Made by a program: the position numbers and the translations under genes. A stretch of DNA of 64,000 nucleotides from contig NZ_BHWB01000002.1 in NCBI RefSeq assembly GCF_003865075.1, forward strand, positions 372,001 to 436,000, in the 5' to 3' direction. The notes under the pieces are model-generated. The model was not told the origin of the DNA and did no database searches. It saw only the letters and a program-made list of their open reading frames with translations. This document shows, piece after piece, positions 26,482 to 40,419 of this stretch (position 1 is its first letter; each line of letters opens with the position of its first letter). The DNA comes from Bacteroides faecalis (GTDB taxonomy: Bacteria > Bacteroidota > Bacteroidia > Bacteroidales > Bacteroidaceae).

Positions 26482-26524
26482 AACACTGATAATAAGCAAA
26501 CTAACTTTTTATCAGTGTTTTTTA
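26482..26524 (+). terminator. Terminator after thiL
   Basis: Perfect 11-bp arms at 26482-26492 and 26509-26519 (AACACTGATAA and its complement), followed by a T run. Confidence 0.85.
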
Positions 26525-26558
26525 TTTCCAGAATCCTTGCAGAATCCAAAAGTTTCAC

Positions 26559-26566
26559 TACCTTTG
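26559..26566 (+). promoter_or_regulatory. tRNA-Phe promoter -7 box
   Basis: TACCTTTG, an exact match to TAnnTTTG, 17 bases before the tRNA. A TTG lies about 20 bases upstream. Confidence 0.65.
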
Positions 26567-26583
26567 CAACCGCAAACAAGAAA

Positions 26584-26656
26584 GGTGCCATAGCTCAGTT
26601 GGTAGAGCAAAGGACTGAAAATCCTTGTGTCCCCGGTTCGATTCCTGGTGGCACCA
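26584..26656 (+). tRNA. tRNA-Phe (GAA anticodon)
   Basis: 73 bases, CCA not encoded. The anticodon arm reads AGGACTGAAAATCCT (anticodon GAA). The acceptor stem GGTGCCA/TGGCACC is perfect. The last 12 bases plus the next base form the left attachment site of the element to the right; the tRNA gene stays intact after integration. Confidence 0.97.
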
Positions 26657-26657
26657 C
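26645..26657 (+). repeat. Left attachment site (attL) in tRNA-Phe
   Basis: CTGGTGGCACCAC, the 3' end of the tRNA gene plus one base, repeated exactly at 40407-40419. The flanking sequences differ. Confidence 0.8.
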
Positions 26658-26680
26658 TTTTAAAAGACTTCAAAATTGGT

Positions 26681-26722
26681 AAATCCCTGAAAATTAAACA
26701 TTTCAGGGATTTTCTTTTTCTT
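26681..26722 (+). terminator. Terminator after tRNA-Phe
   Basis: Perfect 12-bp arms at 26681-26692 and 26701-26712 around an 8-base loop, followed by TTTCTTTTTCTT. It lies inside the integrated element, which may therefore supply the tRNA with a new terminator. Confidence 0.8.
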
Positions 26723-26892
26723 CTAATCCGCATATTTTGAGCAGAATTACGCACTTCCGTAGTGCTAAATCGTGGACAATTTTAGTCTCGAAAAAAATGT
26801 CCACGAATTGTACCGTAAGTCGTTGATTGTCTTATCGTTTGTTTCTTGCTATTCTGCACGATTCAGTAACTTTAAACATTAATTTTTAGAGT

Positions 26893-28119
26893 ATGAAACG
26901 ACAGACTTTTAATGTGCTGTTCTTCATCCGCAAAACAAGAACAGTAAAATCAGGTGAAACGCCTATCATGTTGCGGATAACAATTCAAGGTCAATTAGCT
27001 GAAATACAGCTAAAACGAACTATTAAGCCCGAACTTTGGTCGCAAGCCAAAGAATGGTGTACAGGCAAAGATTCTAAATCTGTAGAAGTAAACCGCTATT
27101 TAGAATCGGTAAAATTACGCTTGTATGAGATTCATCGAACTTTAGAAGATGAAAACAAACTAATTAATCCGATGGAGATTAAAAGGCGTTTTCTCGGACT
27201 GGATGAAAAGCATAAGATGTTCTTTGGAGTATTCCAAGAACACAACGACAAATGTCGGGAACTGATCGGCAAGGATTATGCAAAGGTCACTATCTCCCGT
27301 TTTGATACATGCTTGAAGTATTTTAAAGAAATGCTTCTAAAACAGTACCATCTAAAAGATATTCCGATGAAAGAAATAAATAATGCCATTATTCAGGACT
27401 ATATTCATTTCTTGAAATCAAAAAAGAATCTGCAAGAAAATACAGTTATCCGCTACATGAAAGTAGTCAAGAAGATTACTAACATGGCTCTTGCAAACGA
27501 CTGGTTAGATAAAAATCCGTTTATGAATATCCACTTCCATGAGCAAGAAGTGCATAAGGAGTTTCTAACCAAAGAAGAATTAGAAATTTTACGAACTAAA
27601 GTTTTCAATGTACCACGCTTGGAATTGGTACGTGATATTTTCTTATTCCAGTGTTGGACTGGATTAGCGTTCATAGATGTATCGGAATTGAAACCCGAAC
27701 ATTTGGTAACAGATAATGAAGGTAACATCTGGATAAGAAAGGCTCGCCAAAAGACAAAAATCATGTGTAACATTCCACTTTTGGATATTCCGTTAGCTAT
27801 ATTGGATAAATACAAGGGCTATCCGCTTTGCGAAAAGAAAGGTACATTATTACCCGTTCCATGCAACCAAAAGGCAAACAGTTATTTGAAGGAAATAGCT
27901 GATTTCTGCGGAATTAAGAAGAACCTGACCACTCATACAGGGCGTCATACTTTTTCGACTGTCGTTACGCTAGCTAACAATGTTTCATTGGAAAATGTAT
28001 CTAAGATGCTCGGTCATACCAATACGAAGATGACACAACGGTACGCAAAAGTATTAGATCAGAGTATTCTCCGAGATATGCAGAATGTACGAGAAAATTT
28101 CTCTCCTAAAACCACCTAA
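26893..28119 (+). CDS. Tyrosine recombinase (integrase) of the element
   Basis: A 408-residue site-specific recombinase. It has an N-terminal arm-binding region (about 1-105), a core-binding SAM-like domain (about 110-215) and a C-terminal catalytic domain. The catalytic residues seen are H348 and R351 (HTGRHTFS), H375 (LGHTN) and Y384 (RYAKV). The first catalytic arginine, normally in TGLR, is replaced: TGLAFIDV has A259. The integrase of CTnDOT also lacks this arginine, so the change need not inactivate the enzyme. It lies 236 bases after tRNA-Phe and points into the element, and probably integrates it at the tRNA 3' end. Confidence 0.94.
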   Translation: MKRQTFNVLFFIRKTRTVKSGETPIMLRITIQGQLAEIQLKRTIKPELWSQAKEWCTGKDSKSVEVNRYLESVKLRLYEIHRTLEDENKLINPMEIKRRFLGLDEKHKMFFGVFQEHNDKCRELIGKDYAKVTISRFDTCLKYFKEMLLKQYHLKDIPMKEINNAIIQDYIHFLKSKKNLQENTVIRYMKVVKKITNMALANDWLDKNPFMNIHFHEQEVHKEFLTKEELEILRTKVFNVPRLELVRDIFLFQCWTGLAFIDVSELKPEHLVTDNEGNIWIRKARQKTKIMCNIPLLDIPLAILDKYKGYPLCEKKGTLLPVPCNQKANSYLKEIADFCGIKKNLTTHTGRHTFSTVVTLANNVSLENVSKMLGHTNTKMTQRYAKVLDQSILRDMQNVRENFSPKTT

Positions 28120-28125
28120 AGATAA

Positions 28126-28162
28126 AAACGGCTACCCAATCCATTCGGACGGTAGCCGTTTC
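28126..28162. terminator. Bidirectional terminator between integrase and HTH genes
   Basis: AACGGCTACC and GGTAGCCGTT form a GC-rich hairpin with A runs on one side and T-rich sequence on the other. It lies between the convergent integrase gene and the minus-strand HTH genes. Confidence 0.75.
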
Positions 28163-28184
28163 TCTATCTTCATTATATTAAAGG

Positions 28185-28487
28185 CTAAAGAGAATAATCT
28201 CCTATATTATAGGCAGAACGAAACCTATCTTCCAAAACCTTCCTAATATCCGATTCACGAAACAGCACTTTGCCCGGAAGTTGGATAAAAGGGAAAATGC
28301 CATCATCCCGATAATACTGCAAAGTTCTACGGCTGATTTTGAGAATAGAACAAAGTTCTTCACTTGTCAGATACCGTTCACCCTCAAACATGGGCTTATT
28401 ATTCTTCAATGCATATTCTATATAAGGTAAAACCCTATCTAACGATTGCAATAATTCTTGGCTATCCTCATTCGTATATAAGTCCAT
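28185..28487 (-). CDS. Helix-turn-helix protein, excisionase-like
   Basis: A 100-residue protein from the ATG at 28487 (a TTG two codons earlier is less likely). The C-terminal half is a MerR/excisionase-type winged helix: LTSEELCSILKISRRTLQYY, then GIFPFIQLPGKVLFRESDIRKV. Proteins of this type accompany integrases on Bacteroides mobile elements and act in excision or gene control. It lies seven bases after the upstream HTH gene, forming a pair. Confidence 0.8.
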   Translation of the reverse strand: MDLYTNEDSQELLQSLDRVLPYIEYALKNNKPMFEGERYLTSEELCSILKISRRTLQYYRDDGIFPFIQLPGKVLFRESDIRKVLEDRFRSAYNIGDYSL

Positions 28488-28493
28488 AAGCAA

Positions 28494-28808
28494 TTATTCT
28501 TTAGTGGTTACTTTTATTCTACCTGAATCCAATAGTTTTTGTACTTCGGCAACCTTATAATATACCTTCTTGCCAACAGTCGAAAAAGAAAGTTTGCCAC
28601 TCTCACGTAAAGACTGTAATGTTCGTAAAGGAATATTTAAGGAAGCTGCCAATGCCCTACCCTCTATCCATTCTTTCTCAATACGCATATCAGAGGGAGA
28701 TAAAGAAGTATTATCTGCCCATGATACAATCTGTTCCAGCTTCTTTCTAAAAAAATCGAAGGAAAACCTTTCTATTGCTACTATATCCATATATAAATTA
28801 CTTTTCAA
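28494..28808 (-). CDS. Helix-turn-helix protein, excisionase-like
   Basis: 104 residues from 28808, or 98 from the ATG at 28790, which gives a start more typical of the group (MDIVAIERFSFDFFRKK). It contains the recognition segment LAASLNIPLRTLQSLRESGK and the wing GKKVYYKVAEVQKLLDSG. It is the first gene of a two-gene unit with the excisionase-like gene that follows. It may act in excision or regulation of the element; this is inferred from the fold and the setting. Confidence 0.78.
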   Translation of the reverse strand: MKSNLYMDIVAIERFSFDFFRKKLEQIVSWADNTSLSPSDMRIEKEWIEGRALAASLNIPLRTLQSLRESGKLSFSTVGKKVYYKVAEVQKLLDSGRIKVTTKE

Positions 28809-28873
28809 AATTCATTTTCTTTTAAAGTAAGTTTTCCAGAACTCAATATGAAGCATTGACAAAGGTAAGTTCC

Positions 28874-28975
28874 GTATTTAGCCTGTTCAAGTCCAAGCCT
28901 TCGGTTTAGATAAAAATCTTCCTCTCATTGCATTTCGAGCGTATTTTTATCTAAAGACTTGCACAGACTAAATAC
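28874..28975. repeat. Large compound palindrome, about 102 bp
   Basis: Three nested pairs of exact arms share one centre near 28925-28930: GTATTTAG (28874-28881) with CTAAATAC (28968-28975), CAAGTC (28888-28893) with GACTTG (28956-28961), and a 13-bp arm at 28905-28917 with its complement at 28943-28955. It lies in the 230-base gap between two HTH units. It may be a protein-binding site or a structured RNA leader; no gene overlaps it. Confidence 0.65.
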
Positions 28976-29038
28976 TTCACTGAAAAAGTCAATGATTCAA
29001 ATTAAATTCCGAAAAACAATATTTTTGAGGGTGGCAGA

Positions 29039-29332
29039 TTATTCTTTCCAGCTTTCGAAGTAATGCTTTTGCAGGAGTTTATCAATATCACTTTGACGAT
29101 ATATGATTTTCCCTTTTATCTGGATGAAGGGGATTAATCCCGTATCCCGCCATTCTTGCAGAGTTCGTAGACTGACATTCAGTTTTTTAGAAACCTCATG
29201 ATTAGAAAGAAATCGTTCTCCGTTTAGGTGGGGCTTATAGTGCTTGACAATCGATTCAATACCGTTCAGCATTCAATCGAGCGAAGAAATAAATTCTTTG
29301 ACTTGTGGGGTATCTTTATTTATTAGTTCCAT
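29039..29332 (-). pseudogene. Helix-turn-helix protein with an early nonsense codon
   Basis: The frame starts at 29332 (MELINKDTPQVKEFISSLD), meets TGA at codon 20, and continues in the same frame with MLNGIESIVKHYKPHLNGER and a complete excisionase-type HTH (LNVSLRTLQEWRDTGLIPFI, then the wing with IIYRQSDIDKLL). The neighbouring relative at 28185 has SLDRVL where this one has SLD-stop-ML, so a CGA to TGA change fits. The ATG directly after the stop (29272) could still give a 77-residue protein with the whole DNA-binding part, so it may remain partly functional. Confidence 0.7.
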
Positions 29333-29413
29333 GATTGAAAGATTGTTTTATTGAAATATTGATTTCAAGATTGCTGGATGGCTAATCAGTTGAATAATTA
29401 GCTGATTGATTAA

Positions 29414-29707
29414 TTAGTTTCGCAGATAGTCACCCAGTGATGAAAGATTAAGCACATCTTTCACTGGATCATAATCTATGTAAATCCGTTTAGGAGCAGG
29501 AGCAATAAAATACAGGCTACCTTCTTTTTGTATTTCATATGTGGCGGGTGAAGCCTGTTTGGTAGTTTCCGATACATATATAATAGAAAGAAGATAGTCT
29601 TTATCATTACGGTAGATGATAACCGTAGGATTCAGATTAACGCTTTCCCATGTGCCGACAATAGAAAACAGATTAAAGGATGGATAATCTTCTTTAGTTC
29701 TTTTCAT
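29414..29707 (-). CDS. DUF3876 family protein
   Basis: A 97-residue protein from the ATG at 29707 (MKRTKEDYPSFNLFSIVGTW); the longer reading to 29767 lies within the upstream gene. It contains the beta-rich pattern IVGTWESVNLNPTVIIYRND and IYIDYDPVKDVLNLSSLGDY typical of DUF3876, a family common on Bacteroides mobile elements. The function is unknown. Its start overlaps the end of the upstream HTH gene by 14 bases, so the two form an operon. Confidence 0.75.
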   Translation of the reverse strand: MKRTKEDYPSFNLFSIVGTWESVNLNPTVIIYRNDKDYLLSIIYVSETTKQASPATYEIQKEGSLYFIAPAPKRIYIDYDPVKDVLNLSSLGDYLRN

Positions 29708-30008
29708 AAGGCGTAATTTGTTTGAGTGATTGATTTTGTGTTTCACTGTCCGCAATAAATCTTTCAATATCGGAAGACTTATAATAAATCTTGTTCCCTA
29801 TTTGGGAATAAGCCAGCCGTCCACTACTTCGGTAATATTGCAGCGTTCGTTTACTAAAACCTAACAGCAGGCACACTTCCTGACCATCCAGCCAGTTTTC
29901 AACTTTTTGAGTATGAGTGCTGCACAAACTCTCTATCCGTTTGGCAAACTCCGTGAACCGTTCGCAGACATACGAAAAGGTTCTCTTTTCAATGGTTACT
30001 ACTTCCAT
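29694..30008 (-). CDS. Helix-turn-helix protein, excisionase-like
   Basis: A 104-residue protein from the ATG at 30008 (MEVVTIEKRTFSYVCERFTE); a longer frame exists but its leader looks noncoding. An N-terminal helix is followed by the HTH segment VCLLLGFSKRTLQYYRSSGR and the wing GNKIYYKSSDIERFI. It resembles the HTH proteins at 28185 and 33263. It is first in a two-gene unit with the DUF3876 gene. Confidence 0.82.
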   Translation of the reverse strand: MEVVTIEKRTFSYVCERFTEFAKRIESLCSTHTQKVENWLDGQEVCLLLGFSKRTLQYYRSSGRLAYSQIGNKIYYKSSDIERFIADSETQNQSLKQITPYEKN

Positions 30009-30190
30009 ACTTTTAATTTTTAATGGTTTATAAAACGTGTTGATTCTATTTTCACCAGCAAATGAAAGAAGAATCAAGAGCCGTTTTCTAAACTGTCTGA
30101 AAGTGGTATGAAGTGGTTATAACTGGCTGGATAAATGAAAATAGAAATTATACACTGTGAACATACAAGATGTTAAAATCGAAGATTTTA

Positions 30191-30221
30191 TACTTACTAC
30201 TAAGTAAATTGTATATATTTG
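30191..30221 (+). promoter_or_regulatory. Promoter with TetR operator upstream of the first tetR gene
   Basis: The 16-bp palindrome TACTTA-N4-TAAGTA (30191-30206) is followed by the -7 box TATATTTG (30214-30221), five bases before the start codon. The same palindrome recurs at 30793-30808. This fits an autoregulated TetR repressor. Confidence 0.7.
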
Positions 30222-30225
30222 CGTC

Positions 30226-30771
30226 ATGAATGATACAAGAAGTGAAATAATACGTATAGGAAGTGAATTAATTCGCTCTATTGGTTACAATTCTTTTAGC
30301 TATGCAGACATATCTAAGGCATTGAATATAAAGAATGCAGCTATTCATTATTATTTCCCTTCAAAGTCGGATCTGGGAGTAGAGATAATAAGAGAAAATC
30401 TGAATGCTTTCAACGAACTAACTAAGACATGGGAAAGTTTGGATTATAAATCGCAGTTTTCCAATTACATTCATATGCATGATAGTTTTATCAATAATCA
30501 TTGGGTTTGTATAGTTGGCTCACTTTCACCATCTTATGACACTTTACCTGAAAACATGCAGAAAGAGTTGCAGGGATTGGTAAACACGATTCTGAAATGG
30601 CTTACAGCTTTATTAGATAAAGGTTTAAAAAACAATGCTTTTTCATTTGCGGAAACACCAAGAACAAAGGCTTTTATGGTTCATTCTGCATTACTATCTT
30701 CTTTGCAAATGAATAAAGTATTAAGAAATGATGTGTATAAATCAATACAGGAAGGATTATTAAATATCTAA
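30226..30771 (+). CDS. TetR/AcrR family transcriptional regulator
   Basis: A 181-residue regulator. The N-terminal HTH (about residues 5-50) contains GYNSFSYADISKALNIKNAA followed by IHYYFPSKSDLGVEII, the classic TetR signature. The C-terminal helical region is the ligand-binding part; its ligand is unknown. A palindrome overlaps its promoter and a second copy precedes the DinB-like gene downstream, so it probably represses itself and that gene. The leader is very short (about five bases after the -7 box), which is unusual and leaves the start codon slightly uncertain. Confidence 0.9.
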   Translation: MNDTRSEIIRIGSELIRSIGYNSFSYADISKALNIKNAAIHYYFPSKSDLGVEIIRENLNAFNELTKTWESLDYKSQFSNYIHMHDSFINNHWVCIVGSLSPSYDTLPENMQKELQGLVNTILKWLTALLDKGLKNNAFSFAETPRTKAFMVHSALLSSLQMNKVLRNDVYKSIQEGLLNI

Positions 30772-30792
30772 TATTTTTTTGCCCCAAGTACT

Positions 30793-30808
30793 TACTTACT
30801 AATAAGTA
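30793..30808 (+). promoter_or_regulatory. Second copy of the TetR operator
   Basis: TACTTA-N4-TAAGTA with the same arms as 30191-30206, 15 bases before the DinB-like start codon. Confidence 0.7.
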
Positions 30809-30823
30809 TATAAATTTATAGAA

Positions 30824-31342
30824 ATGAAAAGAATTGATTTTTTAAGAGAACAGATTATTGAATCGAGGAATTTTGTAAATCGTTTGATTTCCGAAATACC
30901 ACAAGATTTGTGGTACACAATTCCTCAAAACACAGATTCAAATTTTGCTTGGCAAGTTGGACATTTAATGATTAGCCAAAACTTCCATGCTATCACATGT
31001 ATCACAGGAAGAAATACTAAAGTCGCAGAATTGATACCTATTGTTGATTATGTGAAAATCTTCAATGGTATGGGAACCCTACATAGGTCAGTAGAAAAAA
31101 ACTTGATACCAGCATATGAGCTAAAAGATCAGTTTGATGCCATTCACGAAATATGCATAGATAATTTATCCCAATTAAATGATGATATATTATTTGAGCA
31201 ATTAGAACCTATTCCGTTTAAGCATCCAGTAGCTAATAATAAATATGAAGCATTATCTTGGTGTTTCAAACATGAAATGTGGCATAGTGCGGAAATGGAA
31301 GAATTAAAGCGTATGCTAGGTTATCCTATCAAATGGCTTTAA
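30824..31342 (+). CDS. DinB-like superfamily protein
   Basis: A 172-residue protein with the four-helix-bundle pattern of the DinB/YfiT superfamily. Candidate metal-ligand histidines lie in WQVGHLMISQNFHAITC near residue 48 and in the C-terminal FKHEMWHSAEMEELKRML. Members are metal-dependent hydrolases or thiol transferases acting on small molecules. The palindrome upstream suggests control by the TetR protein next to it. The substrate is unknown. Confidence 0.82.
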   Translation: MKRIDFLREQIIESRNFVNRLISEIPQDLWYTIPQNTDSNFAWQVGHLMISQNFHAITCITGRNTKVAELIPIVDYVKIFNGMGTLHRSVEKNLIPAYELKDQFDAIHEICIDNLSQLNDDILFEQLEPIPFKHPVANNKYEALSWCFKHEMWHSAEMEELKRMLGYPIKWL

Positions 31343-31430
31343 AGATAGCTGCGTCTTAAATACAGGAAATGATAATAAAAGAGACAGGCAAGCTATTGTT
31401 TATTCTAATAAAGTGATTACATTTGCATAC

Positions 31431-31446
31431 CATACCATATGGTATG
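31431..31446 (+). promoter_or_regulatory. Operator palindrome of the second tetR gene
   Basis: A perfect 16-bp palindrome, CATACCATATGGTATG, ending nine bases before the start codon. A -7 box TACATTTG lies at 31418-31425, just upstream, so a bound repressor would cover the start of transcription. Confidence 0.72.
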
Positions 31447-31454
31447 TTTGAGTT

Positions 31455-31991
31455 ATGAAGAAAGTAGATAAAAATCAATGGTTCGTAATAGGACTAAACG
31501 TTTTAGAAAATGATGGATATTCTAAGATTACAATAGACAACTTATGTGCCTTACTGAAAATTACAAAGGGAGCATTCTATCATCATTTTAAGAATATTGA
31601 TGGGTATGTTGATGCTCTCATGAAGTATTGGTTGGAGGTAAACACATTTGAGTTTATTCGTGAAGTGGACAAATTGAGCACTCCCAAAGAGCAACAGCAG
31701 AAATTAGCTGATATGGCAGCATACGCTTCTATCCGAAACGAAAGTGTAATACGGGCATGGGGATATTCCAATCCAATTGTGGAAAATTATGTAGCGCAAG
31801 CGGATAGTATCAGGTTGGAATATGCAAGCAAACTAAATGAAGCAACCGGATTGGATGCTAAACAAGCAATGGATTTGGCGATAATACAATACTCCATGCT
31901 GATTGGCATGCAGCAAGTTTGTTCGGCTCTACCAGCGGAACAGTTCAAAGAGTTGCAGGATATGGTTATCAATAAATTTAAAGAGCAGTAA
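31455..31991 (+). CDS. TetR/AcrR family transcriptional regulator
   Basis: A 178-residue regulator with the HTH signature GYSKITIDNLCALLKITKGA followed by FYHHFKNIDGYVDALM (about residues 17-55). The rest is a helical ligand-binding domain. A perfect palindrome overlaps its own promoter region, so autoregulation is likely. It is followed by the DUF2867-like gene one base later, so the two are probably co-transcribed. Confidence 0.9.
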   Translation: MKKVDKNQWFVIGLNVLENDGYSKITIDNLCALLKITKGAFYHHFKNIDGYVDALMKYWLEVNTFEFIREVDKLSTPKEQQQKLADMAAYASIRNESVIRAWGYSNPIVENYVAQADSIRLEYASKLNEATGLDAKQAMDLAIIQYSMLIGMQQVCSALPAEQFKELQDMVINKFKEQ

Positions 31992-31992
31992 A

Positions 31993-32451
31993 ATGAAAAA
32001 CATACCAATAAGTGGCTTGATTGAAAAGTATCTTCCTGCCGATTATGTAGATTCCTATTCAAGAGAAATAGTTTGTAATCAGAAAATAACACCTGAAAAA
32101 TTTCACAATCTTGCTTTTAACCAACTTCCTAAATGGATAAATTGGTTAATGAATTTACGAAACGCTATCGTAAAGCCATTGGGATTGGATACAAAAAGTA
32201 AATTTACAGATAAGGTGTCTGATAAAAATGAGCATGAAGAGATTTTTGGAATGACTGACAGCCACTTGGATTTTCATGTTTCAATGTGGTGTGGTGAGTA
32301 TAAAAATGGCAAACAGGAACTTAGGATTACAACTATTGTCAAATATAACAATAGGCTTGGACGAATATATTTTTTCTTTATTAGACCATTTCACAGAATA
32401 ATCATTTACTTTCTATTGAAACGAATAAAGAATAAATATGAAAGGCAATAA
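31993..32451 (+). CDS. DUF2867-like protein
   Basis: A 152-residue protein from the ATG at 31993; a longer frame enters the tetR gene. The opening PISGLIEKYLPADYVDSYSR and the later KFTDKVSDKNEHEEIFGMTD, LDFHVSMWCGEYKNG pattern resemble the DUF2867 family of uncharacterized proteins. A C-terminal run FFIRPFHRIIIYFLL may touch the membrane. Its job is unknown; its place after a tetR gene suggests it is the regulated product. Confidence 0.7.
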   Translation: MKNIPISGLIEKYLPADYVDSYSREIVCNQKITPEKFHNLAFNQLPKWINWLMNLRNAIVKPLGLDTKSKFTDKVSDKNEHEEIFGMTDSHLDFHVSMWCGEYKNGKQELRITTIVKYNNRLGRIYFFFIRPFHRIIIYFLLKRIKNKYERQ

Positions 32452-32481
32452 ACAAGAAATATAACGCGTGTTCGATTACTT

Positions 32482-33117
32482 ATGCCAAAATGGAATCTTT
32501 CAGATCAGAATATATATAGTCTTCTCAACTCTTCTTGCACAAAAGAGAATTTTGATGAAGCCCAATTACTTATGGCATATAGAGAATTTGTAAAATCCGT
32601 GATTGCCTTTTTGAATAATGAATCAGATTACAAAACTTTAATTAGAGAACTAAATCTTACCTACATAGAATTTGAAGCACTAAAAAATAGTTTAGAAATC
32701 AGAAGAGATTTCTGTTACGAAGCAAAAAGTATAACATGTAATAAGATACTTTCATTTATTAATAAAGAACTAGATCTACTTCATCATCAAATGGAATTTC
32801 CCAAATTCTTTATTAACATTGAAGCTGGATGGAAATCTACCTTACACCTAAATAAAGATATTGCAAAGTACATCGACATAATGGAAATCGTATGTGGACT
32901 TTATTATCTAAAATGTATTACAACAGTTGATGGGAAGGAAATACATTTTAGTGATTTAGCCAATGCTTTTGAAAAGCTGTTTAACATAAAATTCAGTGAT
33001 ATTTATAAAAAAGAAGAAGAAGTAATCAAACGCAAGCCAGATAAACGGACAGCCTTTTTGGATAAACTGAGAGCTGCAATCATTGAAAAGTGTAAGGAAG
33101 AGGGATATTTTCCATAG
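32482..33117 (+). CDS. RteC-like protein
   Basis: A 211-residue helical protein. The C-terminal half (WKSTLHLNKDIAKYIDIMEI and the following region to KLFNIKFSDIYKKEEEVIKR) matches RteC, a regulator first described on CTnDOT-type elements, where it promotes excision of the element. Here it lies upstream of the excisionase-like HTH gene and the mobilization genes, a fitting place for such a role. It is followed by a terminator. Confidence 0.78.
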   Translation: MPKWNLSDQNIYSLLNSSCTKENFDEAQLLMAYREFVKSVIAFLNNESDYKTLIRELNLTYIEFEALKNSLEIRRDFCYEAKSITCNKILSFINKELDLLHHQMEFPKFFINIEAGWKSTLHLNKDIAKYIDIMEIVCGLYYLKCITTVDGKEIHFSDLANAFEKLFNIKFSDIYKKEEEVIKRKPDKRTAFLDKLRAAIIEKCKEEGYFP

Positions 33118-33156
33118 GAATTCAATACAGATATTCAGGGTATTAAGTATTATTTA

Positions 33157-33183
33157 TCGGGGAATAGGTGATCTATTCCCCGA
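33157..33183 (+). terminator. Terminator after the RteC-like gene
   Basis: CGGGGAATAG and CTATTCCCCG form a hairpin with a short loop, followed by AATTTATTT. Confidence 0.75.
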
Positions 33184-33262
33184 ATTTATTTGCATCCATT
33201 TTCAGAACTTTGCTTCATCAATCGATTGAAAATCATGAATGTTCAACTTAAAATGAAGCAAA

Positions 33263-33595
33263 ATGTATATAGACAACGAAAACTTTGAGAAATGGATGGA
33301 GAAGCTATCCAAAAAACTCACTGAAATAGGGCAAGACTTAAAATCCCTAATCAATACCGATAAAGTATTAGATGATAATGAAAAGATACTCGATAATCAG
33401 GATTTAGCCTTTCTTCTGAAAGTATCTTTCCGAACGCTTCAACGTTACAGGGTAAGCGGACAACTACCCTACTTTACCATCGGAAAGAAAACCTACTATC
33501 GAGCGAATGATATTCGGGCTTTCGTTCGTGAACGTGCCGACTTTCAAACCTACAAACAGTTTGAAAAAGCTAATCAATTAGAGAATCAACCGTGA
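33263..33595 (+). CDS. Helix-turn-helix protein, excisionase-like
   Basis: A 110-residue protein with a helical N-terminus and the recognition segment LAFLLKVSFRTLQRYRVSGQ followed by the wing GKKTYYRANDIRAFV (about residues 47-90). It belongs to the same group as the minus-strand HTH genes. It directly precedes the hairpin region and the mobilization genes; an excisionase role or control of mobilization is likely but not shown. Confidence 0.82.
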   Translation: MYIDNENFEKWMEKLSKKLTEIGQDLKSLINTDKVLDDNEKILDNQDLAFLLKVSFRTLQRYRVSGQLPYFTIGKKTYYRANDIRAFVRERADFQTYKQFEKANQLENQP

Positions 33596-33603
33596 AAGCA
33601 AAA

Positions 33604-33749
33604 GGTAGCAAATTTAGGAATGAAGCAGTGCTGTTCCTTCCTTGTGCTACCACCCTAATTTAGCTGAAACAGCTACGCCTTTCGGCTTTGCTCGTTTCGC
33701 TAAATTGAGCAAGAGGGAACTGGACAAGTCCTGTTCTTCCCTCTTGCTC
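33604..33749. other. Candidate oriT: three consecutive hairpins
   Basis: GGTAGCA (33604-33610) pairs with TGCTACC (33645-33651). AATTTAGC (33657-33664) pairs with GCTAAATT (33699-33706), with GAAAC/GTTTC inside. A perfect 13-bp arm at 33707-33719 pairs with 33737-33749. The block lies 130 bases upstream of the mobilization genes, where oriT is usual in Bacteroides mobilizable elements. No nic site was identified. Confidence 0.55.
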
Positions 33750-33879
33750 TGCGAGGCAAAGCCTTAAGCTTTAGTGTGTTACAAGAACACGCTGTAATGA
33801 CACCTGTAATAATCATTTCCTTTTCAATGCTTATTGTCAGGTATTTATCTATTCATATTTCTATAAAAAAGTAATTACC

Positions 33880-34464
33880 ATGCCAAACAGCAGTCGAAAA
33901 ACAATATTTACTACCATTTCCATAGACAAGGAAACGGCAGCTTTGGTAGAGAAGATATGCAAACGCTATTCACTGAAAAAGAGTGAAGTTGTAAAGTTGG
34001 CGTTTGGGTATATTAATAAGGCACATATCAACCCATCCGAAGCACCTGAATCCGTAAAATTGGAACTGGCGAAAATAAATAAGAGACAAGATGATATAAT
34101 CCGTTTCATCCGTCATTATGAAGAAGAACAACTGAATCCCATGATACGGGCAACAAATTCTATTGCTTTGCGCTTCAATGCTATCGGTAAAACTTTGGAA
34201 ACTCTTATTCTCTCTCAATTGGAAGCCAATCAGGAGGGACAAACAGCCGTGCTTAAAAAGCTAAGTGAACAGTTCTGTAATCACGCTGATGTGATAAACA
34301 ATCAGTCGAAGCAAATTAACGCACTCTACCAGATACACCAACGGGATTATAAAAAGTTACTTCACCTGATACAACTATATTTGGAACTTTCTGCTTGTGG
34401 TGTAATGGATAGCAAAAGGAAAGAGAATCTGAAAACCGAAATTGGTAATCTGATAAACACATAG
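33880..34464 (+). CDS. BfmA/BtgA-type mobilization protein
   Basis: A 194-residue protein. The N-terminal part (ISIDKETAALVEKICKRYSL and KSEVVKLAFGYINK) is a ribbon-helix-helix-like DNA-binding region; the rest is helical and coiled-coil-like, typical of the BfmA/BtgA family. Such proteins bind oriT and help the relaxase. It lies 130 bases after the hairpin block and four bases before the relaxase gene. Confidence 0.85.
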   Translation: MPNSSRKTIFTTISIDKETAALVEKICKRYSLKKSEVVKLAFGYINKAHINPSEAPESVKLELAKINKRQDDIIRFIRHYEEEQLNPMIRATNSIALRFNAIGKTLETLILSQLEANQEGQTAVLKKLSEQFCNHADVINNQSKQINALYQIHQRDYKKLLHLIQLYLELSACGVMDSKRKENLKTEIGNLINT

Positions 34465-34468
34465 AGTT

Positions 34469-35434
34469 ATGCACATAGATTTTGCCCCGCCATCAAATGG
34501 AACATATAATAATTCTGGGAGTTGCCGACAGCTAGCAAATTATCTGGAACATGAGGATTTAGAAAGGATGGAAAAAGGTATTTATACCGAAGGCTTTTTC
34601 AATCAGACAAAGGACAATATCTATAAATCAAAAGTTATAAAAGATATAGATAGTAATATCGGGCAACTGCTGAAAACGGATGCTAAGTTTTATGCTATTC
34701 ATGTCAGCCCATCGGAAAAAGAACTCCGAGCGATGGGTAATACACAACAGGAACAAGCCGAAGCAATGAAACACTATATCCGTGAAGTGTTTGTTCCTGA
34801 ATATGCTAAGAACTTTAATAAAAAACTATCTGAAGCAGATATAAGGTTTTACGGGAAGATACATTTTGACCGTAGCCGTTCCAACAACGAACTGAATATG
34901 CACTGTCATTTGATCATTAGCCGGAAAGACCAAGCCAATAAAAAGAAGCTATCCCCGCTTATTAATCACAAGAACACCAAGAACGGAGTAATCAAAGGTG
35001 GCTTCAATCGTGTGAATCTGTTCCAACAAGTGGAACAGGGTTTTGATAGACTGTTTGGCTACAACCGCCAAGAATTAGAATCGTTTGATTACCGCAACAC
35101 TATGAAGAACGGTTCTATCTCCGAACAGCTTAGACAGCAAGAGCAAGAACTTCAATCCAATGACAGAAAAATAGGAATCAATCAAAAAAACTTGTTTCTT
35201 ACCAATCTTGAAACTTTGGAAGCTAGAAATCAAACTCTCAATACAGATACTTATATTACTACTAACCAAAAGATAAACAATTCTGACGAACAATCATCCC
35301 ATCAAGCTAACAGTCAATTGCTTAACTCGTCAATATCCTTTTTTTCTACCAAAAGTGATTTATTATCATCTTCTAGCATATCGGAAGAGGAAAAAGCAAA
35401 ACATAAAAAGAGAAGAAAATATAAGCGAAGATGA
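34469..35434 (+). CDS. BtgB-type relaxase (DUF5712)
   Basis: A 321-residue mobilization protein. The histidine motif is seen in HCHLIISRK (H145, H147) with a further histidine in GKIHFDRSRS, the HUH-type metal site of relaxases. The opening IDFAPPSNGTYNNSGSCRQL is typical of the BtgB/DUF5712 group. It should nick oriT and carry the strand into the recipient through a helper element's secretion system. The C-terminal 80 residues are polar and end in KHKKRRKYKRR. It follows its partner by four bases. Confidence 0.86.
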   Translation: MHIDFAPPSNGTYNNSGSCRQLANYLEHEDLERMEKGIYTEGFFNQTKDNIYKSKVIKDIDSNIGQLLKTDAKFYAIHVSPSEKELRAMGNTQQEQAEAMKHYIREVFVPEYAKNFNKKLSEADIRFYGKIHFDRSRSNNELNMHCHLIISRKDQANKKKLSPLINHKNTKNGVIKGGFNRVNLFQQVEQGFDRLFGYNRQELESFDYRNTMKNGSISEQLRQQEQELQSNDRKIGINQKNLFLTNLETLEARNQTLNTDTYITTNQKINNSDEQSSHQANSQLLNSSISFFSTKSDLLSSSSISEEEKAKHKKRRKYKRR

Positions 35435-35504
35435 TGAAATCAATCAAAATTACTTTTATTCAAAAAAAACACTCCTATAGAGCTTATAAGTTAATCTTAT
35501 TTTA

Positions 35505-35512
35505 TAAATTTG
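35505..35512 (+). promoter_or_regulatory. Candidate -7 box for the Qat operon
   Basis: TAAATTTG matches TAnnTTTG, 45 bases upstream of the qatA start codon. No exact -33 TTTG is seen. Confidence 0.45.
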
Positions 35513-35556
35513 TAAAAGTGACATTAAACTAAGGCAAATATAGAACATCTACGACT

Positions 35557-37338
35557 ATGTGGCAAGATAATATTTCAAAGAACGATATGCTTGGATTCGA
35601 TTTACATGCTCGAATCATAATTGCCCTTTTACAAGAGCAAAAAATGTTACCACTAACTTTGGGCGTTTTTGGAGACTGGGGAAGTGGAAAATCCAGTATT
35701 CTTGAAAAAATATATGAAGAATTAAAAACAAAGTCTTTCCAAGACAAAGGAATCTTTACAATTCAGTTTAACGGATGGACTTTTGAAGGCTATGATGACG
35801 CAAAAGCCGCCTTAATGGAAGCAATAGTAAAAAAGATAGAAGACGAATTTAAAACTATTGAGGAGGTAAAATCTGTTGCTAAAAGACTATACAAGTCAAT
35901 AAACTGGATGCGTGTAGCAAAGGTAACAGTTCCTATGGCTACCGCATATTTTACAGGTGGAGCTTCTATCATTCCTCAGATAATATCTAATTTAAAAGAA
36001 TTTAAAGATGCTCCTCAAAAAATAATAGACTTACTTTGTAGTGATAAAGCTGAGGATAAAATAAAGGGATTTATAAAAGAGAACCCAGACACTCCTAGTC
36101 AAGAAAGTCAATCCATACGCGAATTCAGAAAAGATATGACGGAATTATTAGCCAAATCAAATATAAAAGAATTAGTCGTTATAATTGATGATTTAGATCG
36201 CTGTCTGCCAGAAAGAATTATAGATAATTTAGAAGCTATAAAATTATTCTTAAACGTTGATAATACAGCATTCATAATAGGAGCTGATCCTAGAATAGTA
36301 GAAAGTGCAATAACACATCGATACAAAGATAAGTTTCCACTAAACCCTAGTATGTCAGATGGAGAAGATGCTATGGACAAAAAAATTGTTAGAGATTATT
36401 TGGAAAAACTGATACAAATTCCTTACAATCTTCCTAAATTATCTGATACAGAAGTAAATACTTATATTACTCTACTTTTCTGCGAGAATGCATTTTCGCA
36501 TGAAGAATTTGAATCAGTTTACCTTGATTTTTTGAATTTTAAAGAAAAAAAGAGATACTCTGCTTATGATATTAAAATAATAAAAAGTCGATTAGGTGAG
36601 GAAATTATAAAAAAGTTAGATGATGATTGCTTGCTAATCTGCCAATTATCAGGTTTAATTGCAACTTGTTTAAAAGGAAATCCAAGACAAATAAAGCGTT
36701 TTCTAAACATGTATATGTTAAGAAAGAAAATTAAAGATGCTGCACAAATGAAAGATATAAATGAAACTGTGCTAGCTAAACTAATGATATTGGAATATAA
36801 ATCTCCATCACTATTTGGAGAAATATATCAGGACTTAAATCCTAAAACTGGTAAATCTTCAAAAATCAAGAAATATGAAAAAGCAGAAACTAAAGATTTG
36901 CCGCAAAATTGGAAGGACGAATCTACAATACAATGGTTACAGTCAAGTCCCAAATTAGCAGAATTTAATTTATTGGATTATTTTTGGTTATCAAGAGATA
37001 AACTAAGTTCTTTATCTTCCTTGTATATGACTGATCCTGAAATTAGAAGTTTGTTTATTGAACTATCAGCTCCAGAACTTCCAGAACCTGTCATAAAAAA
37101 AATAGTAGATGAAAAACTCAGAATTTTAGATAAAGAGAAACAACTTTCCTTTTACACACTTCTATCGAATAAAATAATAGAAGATCCTAGTAAAAGAGGG
37201 TTGTATCATTTATTTGAATATACAATAGATCTTGAAACCTGTAAATCATCCTATCAAACAACAATATCAACATGTGGATCAAAAGTTCCACCTGCAGCAA
37301 AAAAAGCATATGAACGTCTTTTAAATCCTAAAAAATAA
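35557..37338 (+). CDS. qatA: QatA, KAP-family P-loop NTPase
   Basis: A 593-residue ATPase of the KAP family. Walker A is GDWGSGKS (residues 39-46) and Walker B is VVIIDDLDRC with D212 and D213. Between them the run MATAYFTGGASIIPQIISNL is hydrophobic, in the place where KAP ATPases carry a membrane insert. QatA is the ATPase of the four-gene QatABCD anti-phage system described in 2020. All four genes follow in order without gaps, which settles the assignment. The stop codon overlaps the qatB start (TAATG). Confidence 0.92.
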   Translation: MWQDNISKNDMLGFDLHARIIIALLQEQKMLPLTLGVFGDWGSGKSSILEKIYEELKTKSFQDKGIFTIQFNGWTFEGYDDAKAALMEAIVKKIEDEFKTIEEVKSVAKRLYKSINWMRVAKVTVPMATAYFTGGASIIPQIISNLKEFKDAPQKIIDLLCSDKAEDKIKGFIKENPDTPSQESQSIREFRKDMTELLAKSNIKELVVIIDDLDRCLPERIIDNLEAIKLFLNVDNTAFIIGADPRIVESAITHRYKDKFPLNPSMSDGEDAMDKKIVRDYLEKLIQIPYNLPKLSDTEVNTYITLLFCENAFSHEEFESVYLDFLNFKEKKRYSAYDIKIIKSRLGEEIIKKLDDDCLLICQLSGLIATCLKGNPRQIKRFLNMYMLRKKIKDAAQMKDINETVLAKLMILEYKSPSLFGEIYQDLNPKTGKSSKIKKYEKAETKDLPQNWKDESTIQWLQSSPKLAEFNLLDYFWLSRDKLSSLSSLYMTDPEIRSLFIELSAPELPEPVIKKIVDEKLRILDKEKQLSFYTLLSNKIIEDPSKRGLYHLFEYTIDLETCKSSYQTTISTCGSKVPPAAKKAYERLLNPKK

Positions 37339-38072
37339 TGGGAACATCAACTAGTTACAAAGGCTTGAAAGGAACTCCCGGATGGAGAGAATTAAGTACT
37401 ACTGTTACATCTTCGTGTGGAAGCAGTAAAGATAATGCAGCTCAAAGAGCTTTCTGTAAACATGCGAGCTTTGTCAGAGAGAATAGAAGGGGAAATCATG
37501 GAGGGGGAAGTGGAGTAGGACATGCAGGAACTAAAGCTGCCAAGAAACTACAATCTACATTTTCTTCAATTCGCCAAACAGGGCTAAGTCAATCATTAGC
37601 CTCATGGGGAATGCTTCTAAACGAACATTCTCAGCCCAAAGATGTCATTAACTTTCTACTTGAACATGTATGTGGTAGTGCTTCTTCTTTAGACGAAGTT
37701 GCTGCAAAACAAGCTGAAAAAATGTTATTAGAAGAAATTTGTCTTGATGCCGAGTCAATCCAAGATCTACAAGACAAGTTTCAAGAAACACTTCAACAGT
37801 ATTCAGATATTCAGTTACTTGTAAGATATTTCACATATTATCTCTTCACGCATTTAAGCCAAAGGTTCTATGAAAGTTTGGTAAGAAAAAAGGGAAAAGA
37901 CAATGCCGGAAGACTATTTCAAGATATAAAAGATTATATTAAAGAATGTGTCATAGATGTTTCCGCTCAACATGATTTACAAAGAGTTAATTGGAATAAT
38001 GCTGAGGGGCTTGATATAGAAGAACGTATATTTAATGAAACTTTAAATGCATTTGCAGATTATGAGAATTAA
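37338..38072 (+). CDS. qatB: QatB
   Basis: A 244-residue protein with no known enzyme motif. It opens with MGTSTSYKGLKGTPGWREL, a pattern seen in QatB proteins, followed by a Gly/His-rich segment (NHGGGSGVGHAG near residue 55) and a helical C-terminal half. It is part of the QatABCD system; its biochemical job is not known from sequence. It overlaps both neighbours, qatA by one base and qatC by 11 bases, so translation is coupled. Confidence 0.88.
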   Translation: MGTSTSYKGLKGTPGWRELSTTVTSSCGSSKDNAAQRAFCKHASFVRENRRGNHGGGSGVGHAGTKAAKKLQSTFSSIRQTGLSQSLASWGMLLNEHSQPKDVINFLLEHVCGSASSLDEVAAKQAEKMLLEEICLDAESIQDLQDKFQETLQQYSDIQLLVRYFTYYLFTHLSQRFYESLVRKKGKDNAGRLFQDIKDYIKECVIDVSAQHDLQRVNWNNAEGLDIEERIFNETLNAFADYEN

Positions 38073-39393
38073 TATAGAAAACATTGAATCATACAATGGT
38101 AAAATCCAATTTCGACTTTCAGCAATAAATGAAAATCGTTCTTTTAATGGTCTTTTAACAATTGCGTTGAAAGATTTATATGCATATGCAGGTAGTATTG
38201 AAGGAGAAGCATTCGATTTGCTTTTACTCGCATCGACAGTTTATGGAATTGATATACTTGTAAAAAGAGAATATATTGCTTCTGATAAATGGAGTAGAGA
38301 TTTAGAGTTTACGCTTCCTGTAGCAGACCCCGATAAATGGGAAAATGTGCATGATAAAGTAAATCAATTATTACATTTTCTAACAGCTGACTATTGGAAT
38401 GTTGATTTTGTAAAACGAGAACAAGAACTTAATATACCGAATTATGAAATAAAAAATATATCCGTAGATTCTTATAAAAAAGTATGCTTATTTTCTGGTG
38501 GTATGGATTCTTTAATAGGAGCTATTGACTTGCTACATGATAATGAAGATAAAATTTTGTTTATATCTCATTATGACAGTATTTTTAAAGGAGCAAAATC
38601 TGACCAAGACAAAATTATTCCTATTTTAAAAGAAAAATTCCCGGAATCATTTGATCATATACAGACCCGAATAGATATTAAAGGAAGTTCTAGAGAAACT
38701 ACATTAAGAAGCCGTTCTTTTATGTTTTTAAGTCAGGCTATATATGTAGCTAGTAATCTAGCCCCCGATATAGAAATTATACTACCAGAAAATGGAACAA
38801 TTGCACTAAACCATCCTTTAACAGCATCTAGATATAGCACTTGTAGTACTCGTACAGCTCATCCTTATGTTATAAAAGAATTGAATGAGATAGCTCAAAT
38901 ATTAAGTTTACCTAATAATATAATGAATCCATATGAGTTTAAAACAAAAGGCGAGATGGTGGAAGAGTGTGCAGATAGAGAATTATTTAAAATAACATAT
39001 CCTTTATCTTGTTCATGTGCAAAAAGGGGGACAAGAAAGGATATTCGTGAAAATCGTCATGCTATTAACTGTGGAATATGTATGCCTTGTATATATCGAA
39101 GAGCAGCTCTACATAAAATTGGGCTAGACACCGAAGATATAGGTACAAATGCTTTAAATCCAAATGACTTAATAAGGGATTTAATGCACATACCTGATAT
39201 GCCTGCTTTCTTGGACTTTTTAGCACATGATCTTTCAAAAAAAGAGATAGAAGCTAATCTGCTTTGTAATGGTTCACTTCCTTTGAATGAGCTTTCAAAT
39301 TATGCAGATGTTGTAGTTAGAGTAAGAGAAGAGCTAAAAAAATGGATTGAAGATAAGGGAAATGAAGAAATAAAACATAGAATTCATATATGA
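38062..39393 (+). CDS. qatC: QatC, QueC-like enzyme
   Basis: 443 residues from the ATG at 38062 (MRINIENIES), which overlaps the qatB end; an ATG 15 bases earlier is possible. It contains the PP-loop SGGMDS (residues 145-150) and a cysteine-rich zinc segment near the C-terminus (CSCAKRG and INCGICMPC), both features of QueC, the 7-cyano-7-deazaguanine synthase. The N-terminal 130 residues have no counterpart in QueC. In the Qat system it probably modifies a base or protein; the product is not established. The stop overlaps the qatD start (ATGA). Confidence 0.9.
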   Translation: MRINIENIESYNGKIQFRLSAINENRSFNGLLTIALKDLYAYAGSIEGEAFDLLLLASTVYGIDILVKREYIASDKWSRDLEFTLPVADPDKWENVHDKVNQLLHFLTADYWNVDFVKREQELNIPNYEIKNISVDSYKKVCLFSGGMDSLIGAIDLLHDNEDKILFISHYDSIFKGAKSDQDKIIPILKEKFPESFDHIQTRIDIKGSSRETTLRSRSFMFLSQAIYVASNLAPDIEIILPENGTIALNHPLTASRYSTCSTRTAHPYVIKELNEIAQILSLPNNIMNPYEFKTKGEMVEECADRELFKITYPLSCSCAKRGTRKDIRENRHAINCGICMPCIYRRAALHKIGLDTEDIGTNALNPNDLIRDLMHIPDMPAFLDFLAHDLSKKEIEANLLCNGSLPLNELSNYADVVVRVREELKKWIEDKGNEEIKHRIHI

Positions 39394-40100
39394 TTATTGA
39401 TACTCATTGCCATTTTGATATGATGAAGTCCCCTGAATCATATATTCAAGAAATAGAGAATAAAGGGGACATAGTTATTGGCATGACTAATATGCCAAGT
39501 CATTTTAAGATGGGAGTTCCTTTTGTTAAGAAATACAAGCATGTCAGACTTGCTTTAGGATTACACCCTTTATTAGCAACTGAACAAGATAATGAGTTGG
39601 AGCTTTTTAAGCGACTATTACCACAAACATCATATATAGGAGAAGTTGGGCTTGACTTTTCTAGAGATGGTTATTCAACAAAAGAAAAGCAGATTAAAAA
39701 TTTTGAATTTGTTCTTCAATGTATAGTTAACAAAAACAAGCTGCTCAGTATCCATTCCAAAAGAGCAGAAGAGACTGTTTTAGAATTATTGAAAAGATAC
39801 CATATCTCAAATGCAATATTTCATTGGTACAGTGGAAATCTATCTACGCTAAACAAAATATTAGAATGTAATTATTACTTTTCCTTAAATGAAGCTATGA
39901 TCGAAAGTAGTAATGGTAAAAAGCTAATATCATATATGCCATTGAATAGAATCTTAACAGAAACAGACGCTCCATTCAATAAAAAATGTAATATTAATAA
40001 CGTAATTGCTTATTTGGCAAAAGAACACAATCTAAGTATAGTGGAAATTGAAAGTACAATTAAAACAAACTTCTATTCATTAATCGATAATGTACAATAA
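39390..40100 (+). CDS. qatD: QatD, TatD-family nuclease
   Basis: A 236-residue metal-dependent hydrolase. It has the TatD motifs DTHCHF (HxH metal pair), GLHP, GEVGLDFSR, IHSKRAEE, FHWYSG and TETDAP, so all expected metal ligands appear present. TatD proteins are DNases; here it is the fourth gene of the QatABCD system. It is slightly shorter than housekeeping TatD (about 260). It ends 300 bases before the right end of the mobile element. Confidence 0.92.
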   Translation: MIIDTHCHFDMMKSPESYIQEIENKGDIVIGMTNMPSHFKMGVPFVKKYKHVRLALGLHPLLATEQDNELELFKRLLPQTSYIGEVGLDFSRDGYSTKEKQIKNFEFVLQCIVNKNKLLSIHSKRAEETVLELLKRYHISNAIFHWYSGNLSTLNKILECNYYFSLNEAMIESSNGKKLISYMPLNRILTETDAPFNKKCNINNVIAYLAKEHNLSIVEIESTIKTNFYSLIDNVQ

Positions 40101-40251
40101 AATAAAATCATTATCTTTGCCCTCAGTATTCTCCATGAGCAAACTACCGCAAAAGCACGTAGCAAATTAGTAGGATGATTCATGAGATATGCTTGAAGCA
40201 AAAAATATAAAATTTTAAATATCAGCGTGATTAATCCATTAGGAGACTTCA

Positions 40252-40374
40252 ATGCGATATATAAACAATGAGATATTTGAAGAAAGAATTGTTCTTATAG
40301 CGAGCAAAACGATAAAACATAATCGTGTGCTAAATCATGTGGATTTCCAAATGGAAGAAACTATAAAACGGTGA
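40252..40374 (+). CDS. Possible 40-residue protein near the element's right end
   Basis: A short frame beginning MRYINNEIFEERIVLIASKT, preceded by AGGAGA at a suitable distance. It has no recognized family. It lies between qatD and attR. It may be chance. Confidence 0.25.
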   Translation: MRYINNEIFEERIVLIASKTIKHNRVLNHVDFQMEETIKR

Positions 40375-40406
40375 TAATCAACAGAGAGAAGATAATAGTT
40401 CTCTTG

Positions 40407-40419
40407 CTGGTGGCACCAC
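40407..40419 (+). repeat. Right attachment site (attR)
   Basis: CTGGTGGCACCAC, identical to 26645-26657 at the tRNA-Phe 3' end. What follows is chromosomal: a hairpin terminator that probably once served tRNA-Phe. Confidence 0.8.

What the first reader, a model, noticed from the sequence alone, without database searches (positions are those of the whole stretch)
35557..40100. Complete QatABCD anti-phage system on a mobilizable element
All four genes are present, intact and overlapping: KAP ATPase, QatB, QueC-like enzyme and TatD nuclease. The set matches the known Qat defence system. Its place as the last cargo before attR suggests it moves among Bacteroides strains together with the element. 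QatC has a 130-residue N-terminal part not found in QueC, and the role of QatB is unknown.
Basis: partly seen in the sequence, partly recalled or inferred. Interest (0 to 1): 0.6.

Follow-up and report, generated by a model that had tools for sequence, protein, structure and literature searches.

The report
Qat phage-defence operon as swappable cargo
A complete set of four known phage-defence genes sits in a gut bacterium's mobile DNA element, in a slot where related elements carry other defence genes, and sequence comparison suggests it was swapped in from another type of element.

Summary
Window 35557-40100 carries four overlapping open genes matching QatA, QatB, QatC and QatD. QatC keeps its ATP loop, paired threonines and zinc cysteines; QatD keeps the TatD metal ligands; QatB starts MGTS, a motif shown in print to be essential. 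"Role of QatB unknown" is out of date: published work makes QatBC the minimal unit and QatB the likely substrate of QatC, though the reaction is unsolved.

New here is the slot. The element (13-bp repeats at 26645 and 40407, tRNA-Phe) has relatives at tRNA-Phe and tRNA-Lys. Of 14 examined, all share mobilization genes and 12 a ~130-nt right-end block (40097-40229), with differing cargo. In 9 of 14 the cargo strongly matches defence models (Septu, type I R-M, Nsn, PDC-M37, PD-Lambda-4 and others); in 5 weakly or not. The qat genes are 95-99% identical to those in Parabacteroides gordonii, while DNA on either side is closer to other tRNA-Phe elements, as a double crossover would leave. Qat is known; slot and swap are the new part. 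Function is untested.

The parts
26584..26657 (+). tRNA-Phe (gaa), insertion site; its 3' end is attL (core 26645-26657)
26893..28119 (+). tyrosine integrase, 408 aa (Phage_int_SAM_5, Arm-DNA-bind_5, Phage_integrase)
   Evidence: 49% identical to the tRNA-Lys-type integrase
32482..33117 (+). RteC-like protein, 211 aa
   Evidence: Pfam RteC 8.6e-10
33263..33595 (+). helix-turn-helix protein of the mobilization module
   Evidence: Pfam HTH_17; shared by the element family
33880..34464 (+). BfmA/BtgA-family mobilization protein; with the relaxase gene the left shared arm of the cargo slot
   Evidence: NCBIfam mob_BfmA_Nterm above cut-off
34469..35434 (+). DUF5712/MobB-type relaxase; the window turns clearly P. 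gordonii-like from about 34985
35505..35512 (+). TAAATTTG, fits the Bacteroides -7 promoter box TAnnTTTG (motif recalled), 44 nt before qatA; present in 493 of 10000 shuffles, so weak
35557..37338 (+). qatA: KAP P-loop NTPase, 593 aa, Walker A GDWGSGKSS (39), Walker B VVIIDDLDR (207)
37338..38072 (+). qatB: 244 aa, N-terminus MGTS, P14 and W16 conserved, confident helical domain from about residue 62
38047..39393 (+). qatC: QueC-like, 448 aa; SGGMDS 150-155, T268/T270, Zn cysteines C324/C342/C345/C348
39390..40100 (+). qatD: TatD-family nuclease, 236 aa; H6, H8, E85, H122, H145, D193 present
40097..40229 (.). right-end block found in tRNA-Phe- and tRNA-Lys-type elements; right shared arm of the cargo slot
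40407..40419 (+). attR core CTGGTGGCACCAC

Best explanation
An intact QatABCD anti-phage operon carried as exchangeable cargo by a 13.8-kb integrated mobilizable element at tRNA-Phe. Likely action (inferred from published work on P. aeruginosa and E. coli Qat): QatC binds QatB and, using ATP, modifies the glycine exposed after the start methionine of QatB is removed. The QatBC complex is the core of the defence; the DNA-binding ATPase QatA and the nuclease QatD affect the range of phages stopped. Likely spread (inferred from sequence mosaics): the element moves with help from a resident conjugative system, and its cargo is swapped between elements by one crossover in the mobilization genes and one in or near the conserved ~130-nt right-end block. 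Shown here: gene identities, key residues, element ends, different cargo in the same slot, and the mosaic. Not shown: defence, the QatC reaction, transfer.
For: Family, fold and residue matches for the four genes. Published need for the QatB N-terminal glycine, the QatC ATP loop and the QatC threonines, all present here. Same qat cassette in P. gordonii: qatA 1754/1782, qatB 726/735 (protein 244/244), qatC 1285/1347, qatD 694/711 identical bases, against relaxase 866/966 and bfmA 526/585. Mosaic: at 33185-33384 the window is 200/200 to the tRNA-Phe element L080 and 155/200 to P. gordonii; at 34985-35184 it is 150/200 and 188/200. Right block: 63/64 to P. gordonii at 40101-40164 (G866 58, G869 56); at 40291-40419 the tRNA-Phe-type elements match at 119 to 128 of 129 and P. 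gordonii at 53 of 129, its BLAST match ending at 40229. Other cargo at the same place in other elements; 0 of 10 chromosomal control genes hit PADLOC.
Against: No phage test. QatA, QatB and QatD score below NCBIfam's curated cut-offs. The QatC reaction is unresolved in print, and the queE survey decides nothing because queE is near universal in this class (381 of 396). No empty tRNA-Phe site was found. The left end of the P. gordonii element was not located. Between 33785 and 34984 no donor is clearly closest, so the left crossover is only placed within that 1.2 kb; in the second half of the right block G866 is slightly closer than P. gordonii (62 against 60 of 65). The element L080 lacks the right block. 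The swap rests on one traced case.
Confidence: 0.84

Rival explanations
1. The operon is a Qat relative that no longer defends (a decaying island).
For: Three of four proteins fall below NCBIfam cut-offs; the P. gordonii copy has a frameshifted qatA; of the codons that differ from P. gordonii, 19 of 61 in qatC and 6 of 15 in qatD change the residue, which is not strong constraint.
Against: All four frames are open here and key residues are kept; in qatB 9 of 9 differing codons are synonymous. Published qatBC alone protect against some phages.
Confidence: 0.08
2. QatC deazaguanylates QatB with host CDG, exactly as Cap9 does in type IV CBASS.
For: MGTS tail, ATP loop and zinc site kept; the host has queD and queE (adjacent on contig C5) and queC; Libby et al. 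report it as proposed.
Against: The CDG-binding Tyr/Asp are replaced by threonines in QatC, here T268/T270. Host co-occurrence cannot decide: queE in 27 of 29 QatC-matching genomes at E<=1e-10 against 381 of 396 in the class.
Confidence: 0.35
3. The recurring cargo is ordinary gene turnover, and the right-end block is conserved only because the integrase needs it; no cassette exchange between element types.
For: The block lies beside the att site in the eight tRNA-Lys-type copies fetched, as expected for integrase arm sites; the traced mosaic is a single case.
Against: The window is nearer to P. gordonii from 34985 through 40164 and nearer to tRNA-Phe-type elements at 33185-33784 and from 40291. 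Needing the block for integration does not exclude its use as a homology arm.
Confidence: 0.2

Closest known systems
QatABCD defence system (P. aeruginosa and E. coli examples; Gao, Wassarman and Kranzusch 2026, PMC13279940: abstract, Introduction, Results, Discussion and part of Methods read)
   Same: Four genes in the same order; QatB MGTS tail with conserved Pro and Trp; QatC ATP loop, threonine pair and Zn cysteines.
   Different: Divergent: three of the four proteins score below NCBIfam cut-offs; carried by a Bacteroidales mobilizable element.
Type IV CBASS Cap9 (QueC-like protein modifier; described in PMC13279940 and in passages of PMC13329287)
   Same: QueC-fold enzyme paired with a protein that bears an N-terminal glycine motif.
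   Different: Different partner (CD-NTase), CDG-binding Tyr/Asp kept; no QatA or QatD is described for it in what I read.
[quoted passage not shown] 2022, PMC9122126: abstract start and passages seen)
   Same: A fixed slot in a mobile element holding different anti-phage systems; the authors speculate on exchange by recombination.
   Different: Here the slot is in mobilizable elements of Bacteroidales, lies between relaxase gene and right end, and shows a mosaic between two element types.
BfmA/BtgA-type mobilization genes of Bacteroides (B. fragilis plasmid record NZ_OR675140)
   Same: The three mobilization genes (HTH, BfmA/BtgA, DUF5712) at 74% DNA identity.
   Different: The match covers 23% of the 7249-base query, within the mobilization module; no qat match was reported in that record.

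Membership tests
QatABCD system | Four genes A-B-C-D in order, KAP ATPase / QatB / QueC-like / TatD | tested here: met
QatABCD system | QatC ATP loop SGGxDS, threonine pair, Zn cysteines, N-terminal extension | tested here: met
   SGGMDS 150-155, so about 145 residues precede the core; T268/T270 align with Pa T278/T280; C324/C342/C345/C348
QatABCD system | QatB N-terminal MGTS motif and QatB fold | tested here: met
   MGTS at 1-4; model matches 9y02_A/9y01_A first, with modest TM 0.42-0.45
QatABCD system | QatD metal-binding residues of TatD | tested here: met
   H6, H8, E85, H122, H145, D193 aligned with 9xsn_A and 3gg7_A; the ligand set is recalled
QatABCD system | Scores above NCBIfam equivalog cut-offs | tested here: inconclusive
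   QatC above; QatA, QatB, QatD below. An annotation threshold, not a biological feature
QatABCD system | QatB-QatC complex and anti-phage activity | not testable with these tools
   needs protein work and plaque assays
Integrative mobilizable element | Integrase and flanking att repeats at a tRNA gene | tested here: met
Integrative mobilizable element | Relaxase / mobilization genes | tested here: met
   DUF5712 above cut-off; BfmA N-terminal domain above cut-off; MobB_relaxase below cut-off (152 of 200 bits)
Integrative mobilizable element | oriT and actual transfer | not tested
   no oriT model or mating assay used
Type IV CBASS | CD-NTase partner and CDG-binding Tyr/Asp in the QueC-like protein | tested here: not met
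   QatB in place of a CD-NTase; threonines in place of Tyr/Asp

The most novel reading that the evidence does not exclude
A family of Bacteroidales mobilizable elements, inserted at tRNA-Phe or tRNA-Lys, works as a defence-cassette exchange platform: the mobilization genes and a ~130-nt right-end block are two homology arms, systems placed between them are traded by double crossover between co-resident elements, and the five cargo sets without strong matches (L075, L076, L078, L079 and the element of G869) include undescribed defence systems.
Probability: 0.5. Interest if true: 0.6.

Novelty: new member of a known kind. Interest (0 to 1): 0.45.

Why it matters
Qat is known, so the operon alone adds a divergent example that keeps the QatB N-terminal motif and QatC active-site residues that published mutants showed to be needed. 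The slot is more useful: an addressable place in Bacteroidales where defence systems sit between two conserved stretches. It gives a way to list systems, known and unknown, and makes the route by which whole defence systems pass between species testable.

Tried and rejected
Host-pathway test for the QatC substrate: in 29 QatC-matching genomes (14; two of them, those of L015 and L023, without a QatB found) queD was found in 26 at E<=0.001 (not G836, G841, G842), queC above cut-off in 13, and queE at E<=1e-10 in 27 (not G552, 94% complete, and not G836, a MAG). The background for queE is 381 of 396, so the test is uninformative and was dropped.

First reading of the right-end block as a decayed tRNA-Lys end brought in with qat: rejected, because the elements of G866 and G869 carry the same block and the Phe-type attR with other cargo.

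A count for P. gordonii beyond about 40275 used a cut fragment; it was redone with a longer one, and only the figures are used there.

Empty-site search: right-flank homologues in 4 other genomes (about 72%) showed no tRNA gene in the stretches fetched (three of the four extended).

Integrase arm sites: no shared 9-mer between right-end block and left end in the window or L072, one in L074.

Plasmid search: 6 of 72,556 records match and none covers 80% of the query; one Aliarcobacter plasmid has an annotated qatC with a P-loop NTPase and a TatD hydrolase beside it.

Literature: searches were for Qat; some searches were aimed at the slot or at qat in gut Bacteroidales. No listed title or abstract start described the slot, but searches listed 12 of 37 and 12 of 24 papers, and the library lacks most subscription journals. 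Passages only were read in PMC10333322, PMC11066082, PMC13329287 (abstract) and PMC9122126. The 2020 paper that described Qat is known to me by recall and citation only.
Full report
1. The observation. Four ORFs at 35557-40100 overlap by 1, 26 and 4 nt. PADLOC and NCBIfam name them QatA, QatB, QatC and QatD. Only QatC passes NCBIfam's curated cut-off, so this is a divergent member. QatC's nearest solved relatives are the QatC chains 9zee_B (3.3e-60) and 9vlk_A (1.7e-58). QatB is weak by sequence (9zee_A, 1.5e-4), so I predicted its structure from an alignment of 15 QatB proteins. Residues 1-60 and 241-244 are unconfident (pLDDT under 50); the rest is mainly helical. The two best PDB matches of the model are the QatB-QatC complexes 9y02_A and 9y01_A, Foldseek probability 1.00, TM 0.42-0.45, E 0.009 and 0.019; the third match has probability 0.21.

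2. Residues. Of the window and 28 loci examined, 27 QatC proteins were aligned (L015 and L023 left out as cut or fused). They were picked by the presence of the SGGxDS loop, so its conservation is selected. Not selected and the same in all 27: R221, R223, E248-G250, S267, T270, T300, K301, C324, C342, C345, C348; T268 in 26. The phmmer alignment places T268/T270 on T278/T280 of P. aeruginosa QatC. Published mutants of that pair and of the ATP loop lose defence. In 27 of 29 an ORF beginning M-G and ending at the qatC start was found. The pattern required G at position 2, T, S or A at 3 and S, G or T at 4, so those positions are partly selected; Pro14 and Trp16, not selected, are the same in 26 of 27. 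They appear to correspond to Pro16 and Trp18 of the published protein, where deletion of residues 16-22 abolishes defence. QatD keeps H6, H8, E85, H122, H145 and D193, and QatA keeps Walker A and B.

3. How it likely works. Gao et al. [quoted passage not shown] They could not reconstitute the reaction. I infer the same scheme here. Libby et al. 2026 (PMC13329287, abstract and passages) describe carboxydeazaguanylation as the proposed reaction. The genome of this window has queD and queE side by side and queC, so CDG could be made. But queE is present in 381 of 396 genomes of the class, so its presence in 27 of 29 QatC-matching genomes decides nothing.

4. The element. tRNA-Phe 26584-26657, integrase 26893-28119, HTH, BfmA/BtgA protein, DUF5712/MobB-type relaxase 34469-35434, qat, then attR. 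The 13-bp core occurs only twice in the window. The element spans 26658-40419, 13.8 kb.

5. The slot. A search of 60 genomes of the genus with 33171-40229 found matches in 19, the window's own included. In eight further places of seven genomes (two in G772, one in the window's own genome) the mobilization module is followed by other DNA and then by the conserved right-end block. I fetched these eight (L072-L079) and six more places where the mobilization module matched (L080-L085), then 15 stretches of context. The right-end block is followed in all eight by CCCAGGCGGATCAC or a form with at most two changes. For six of them a tRNA-Lys(ttt) gene bearing the matching repeat lies upstream; for L077 the upstream repeat has no tRNA, and for L078 none was found. 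L080, in G785, is a tRNA-Phe element at the same chromosomal site as the window (89% over 25001-35256, flank included); it lacks the block. Searching 133 genomes of the genus for the integrase gave 63 with some match, three of them further good relatives, G866, G869 and G885 (73-82%), which I fetched. G866 and G885 start at tRNA-Phe. G869 has the repeat on both sides (one change on the right) but no intact tRNA-Phe in the stretch fetched. G866 and G869 carry the block; for G885 neither block nor attR was found in the stretch.

6. Cargo in 14 slots (window, L002, L072-L080, G866, G869, G885). Most, not all, cargo ORFs were scanned; left out were five ORFs of 71 to 231 aa in L072, L074, L076 and L077 and several in G885. 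At least one cargo gene has PADLOC E<=1e-20 in 9 of 14: window and L002, Qat (L002 by its 94% identity, not scanned); L072, HerA 5.7e-21, with a Shedu-like gene at 3.4e-20; L073, PDC-S31 7.1e-50 and PD-Lambda-4 1.8e-60, with a weak JetD match 7.9e-6; L074, type II methyltransferase 8e-83, Septu PtuA 3e-257 and PtuB 2.1e-114; L077, type I R-M and NsnA/B/C; L080, PDC-M37A 1.9e-112 and M37B 1.3e-147; G866, methyltransferase 1.1e-48; G885, type I R-M. HerA and methyltransferase models are broad, so L072 and G866 are the weakest. The other 5 had weak or no hits: L075, L076, L078, L079 and G869 (best DrmC 1.1e-8). Pfam shows two NA37 proteins in L076, a transglycosylase in L078 and an nSTAND3 match in the 1243-aa protein of L079. 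Control: 0 of 10 chromosomal genes of the window gave a PADLOC hit at 0.001. In L081-L085 no match to the block was found; of these only L085 was scanned, two genes, SIR2 2.2e-127 and HerA 9.9e-253.

7. The swap. P. gordonii (L002) shares 33171-40229 at 93.9%, while its 16S is 88-89% identical to that of the window (16S confirmed). Its right end is of the tRNA-Lys type. The qat genes are closer (A 1754/1782, B 726/735, C 1285/1347, D 694/711) than the mobilization genes (866/966, 526/585). In 200-nt steps the window equals L080 at 33185-33584 (200/200 twice; P. gordonii 155, 146), the four relatives compared are about equally close at 33785-34984, and from 34985 the window is closest to P. gordonii (188, 189; L080 150, 107; G866 156, 91; G869 151, 72). 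In the right block the first half is closest to P. gordonii (63/64, against 58 and 56); in the second half G866 is slightly closer (62/65, against 60 and 57). From 40291 to 40419 the tRNA-Phe-type elements match at 119 (G866), 127 (L080) and 128 (G869) of 129, and P. gordonii at 53 of 129, about what I would expect from aligning unrelated DNA. This is what a double crossover would leave, one exchange at 33.8-35.0 kb in the bfmA-relaxase stretch and one in or just after the right block. It rests on one traced case, and the recipient is not L080 itself.

8. Novelty. The system is known. I found no description of this slot in the open-access searches listed under Tried and rejected, two of which showed only part of their hits. 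[quoted passage not shown] I therefore file the finding as a new member of a known kind, with the slot as the novel case.

Noticed in passing
L079 (G000:C7:78500-89500), 1794-5525 minus strand: The window's own genome holds a second element of the family, tRNA-Lys type, with a single 1243-aa protein (nSTAND3 match) as cargo; no PADLOC hit.
   Followed up: partly
L076, 386-3886 minus strand: Two 37-kDa nucleoid-associated (NA37) proteins around a 468-aa protein without a Pfam or PADLOC hit; candidate undescribed defence set by location.
   Followed up: partly
L075, 4648-8553: Four-gene cargo without a clear family match, filling the defence slot.
   Followed up: partly
L109-L110 (G866:C5) and L111-L112 (G869:C1): The Phe-type integrase gene is interrupted in both genomes: about 18 kb of other DNA with 17 bp of overlap at the break in G866, about 11 kb with 5 bp of overlap in G869; the G869 insert has ORFs that look resolvase-like by eye (no family search).
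   Followed up: no
L002, 4512-6292: qatA of the P. gordonii copy is frameshifted (ORFs of 387 and 236 aa); could be real or an assembly error. An intact copy exists in the window.
   Followed up: no
L002, 9461-14144: Directly after the P. gordonii qat element's right end lies another integrase (61% to the tRNA-Lys type) and a P-loop protein that looks KAP-like by eye: elements stacked end to end.
   Followed up: no
genomes: 16 of 29 QatC-matching genomes lack a QueC above cut-off, although most have queD and queE; may be a trait of these groups.
   Followed up: no
L023 (G365:C86), 397-2766: A 789-aa ORF with a weaker QatC match (127 bits), possibly a fusion; no QatB found beside it on a short contig.
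   Followed up: no
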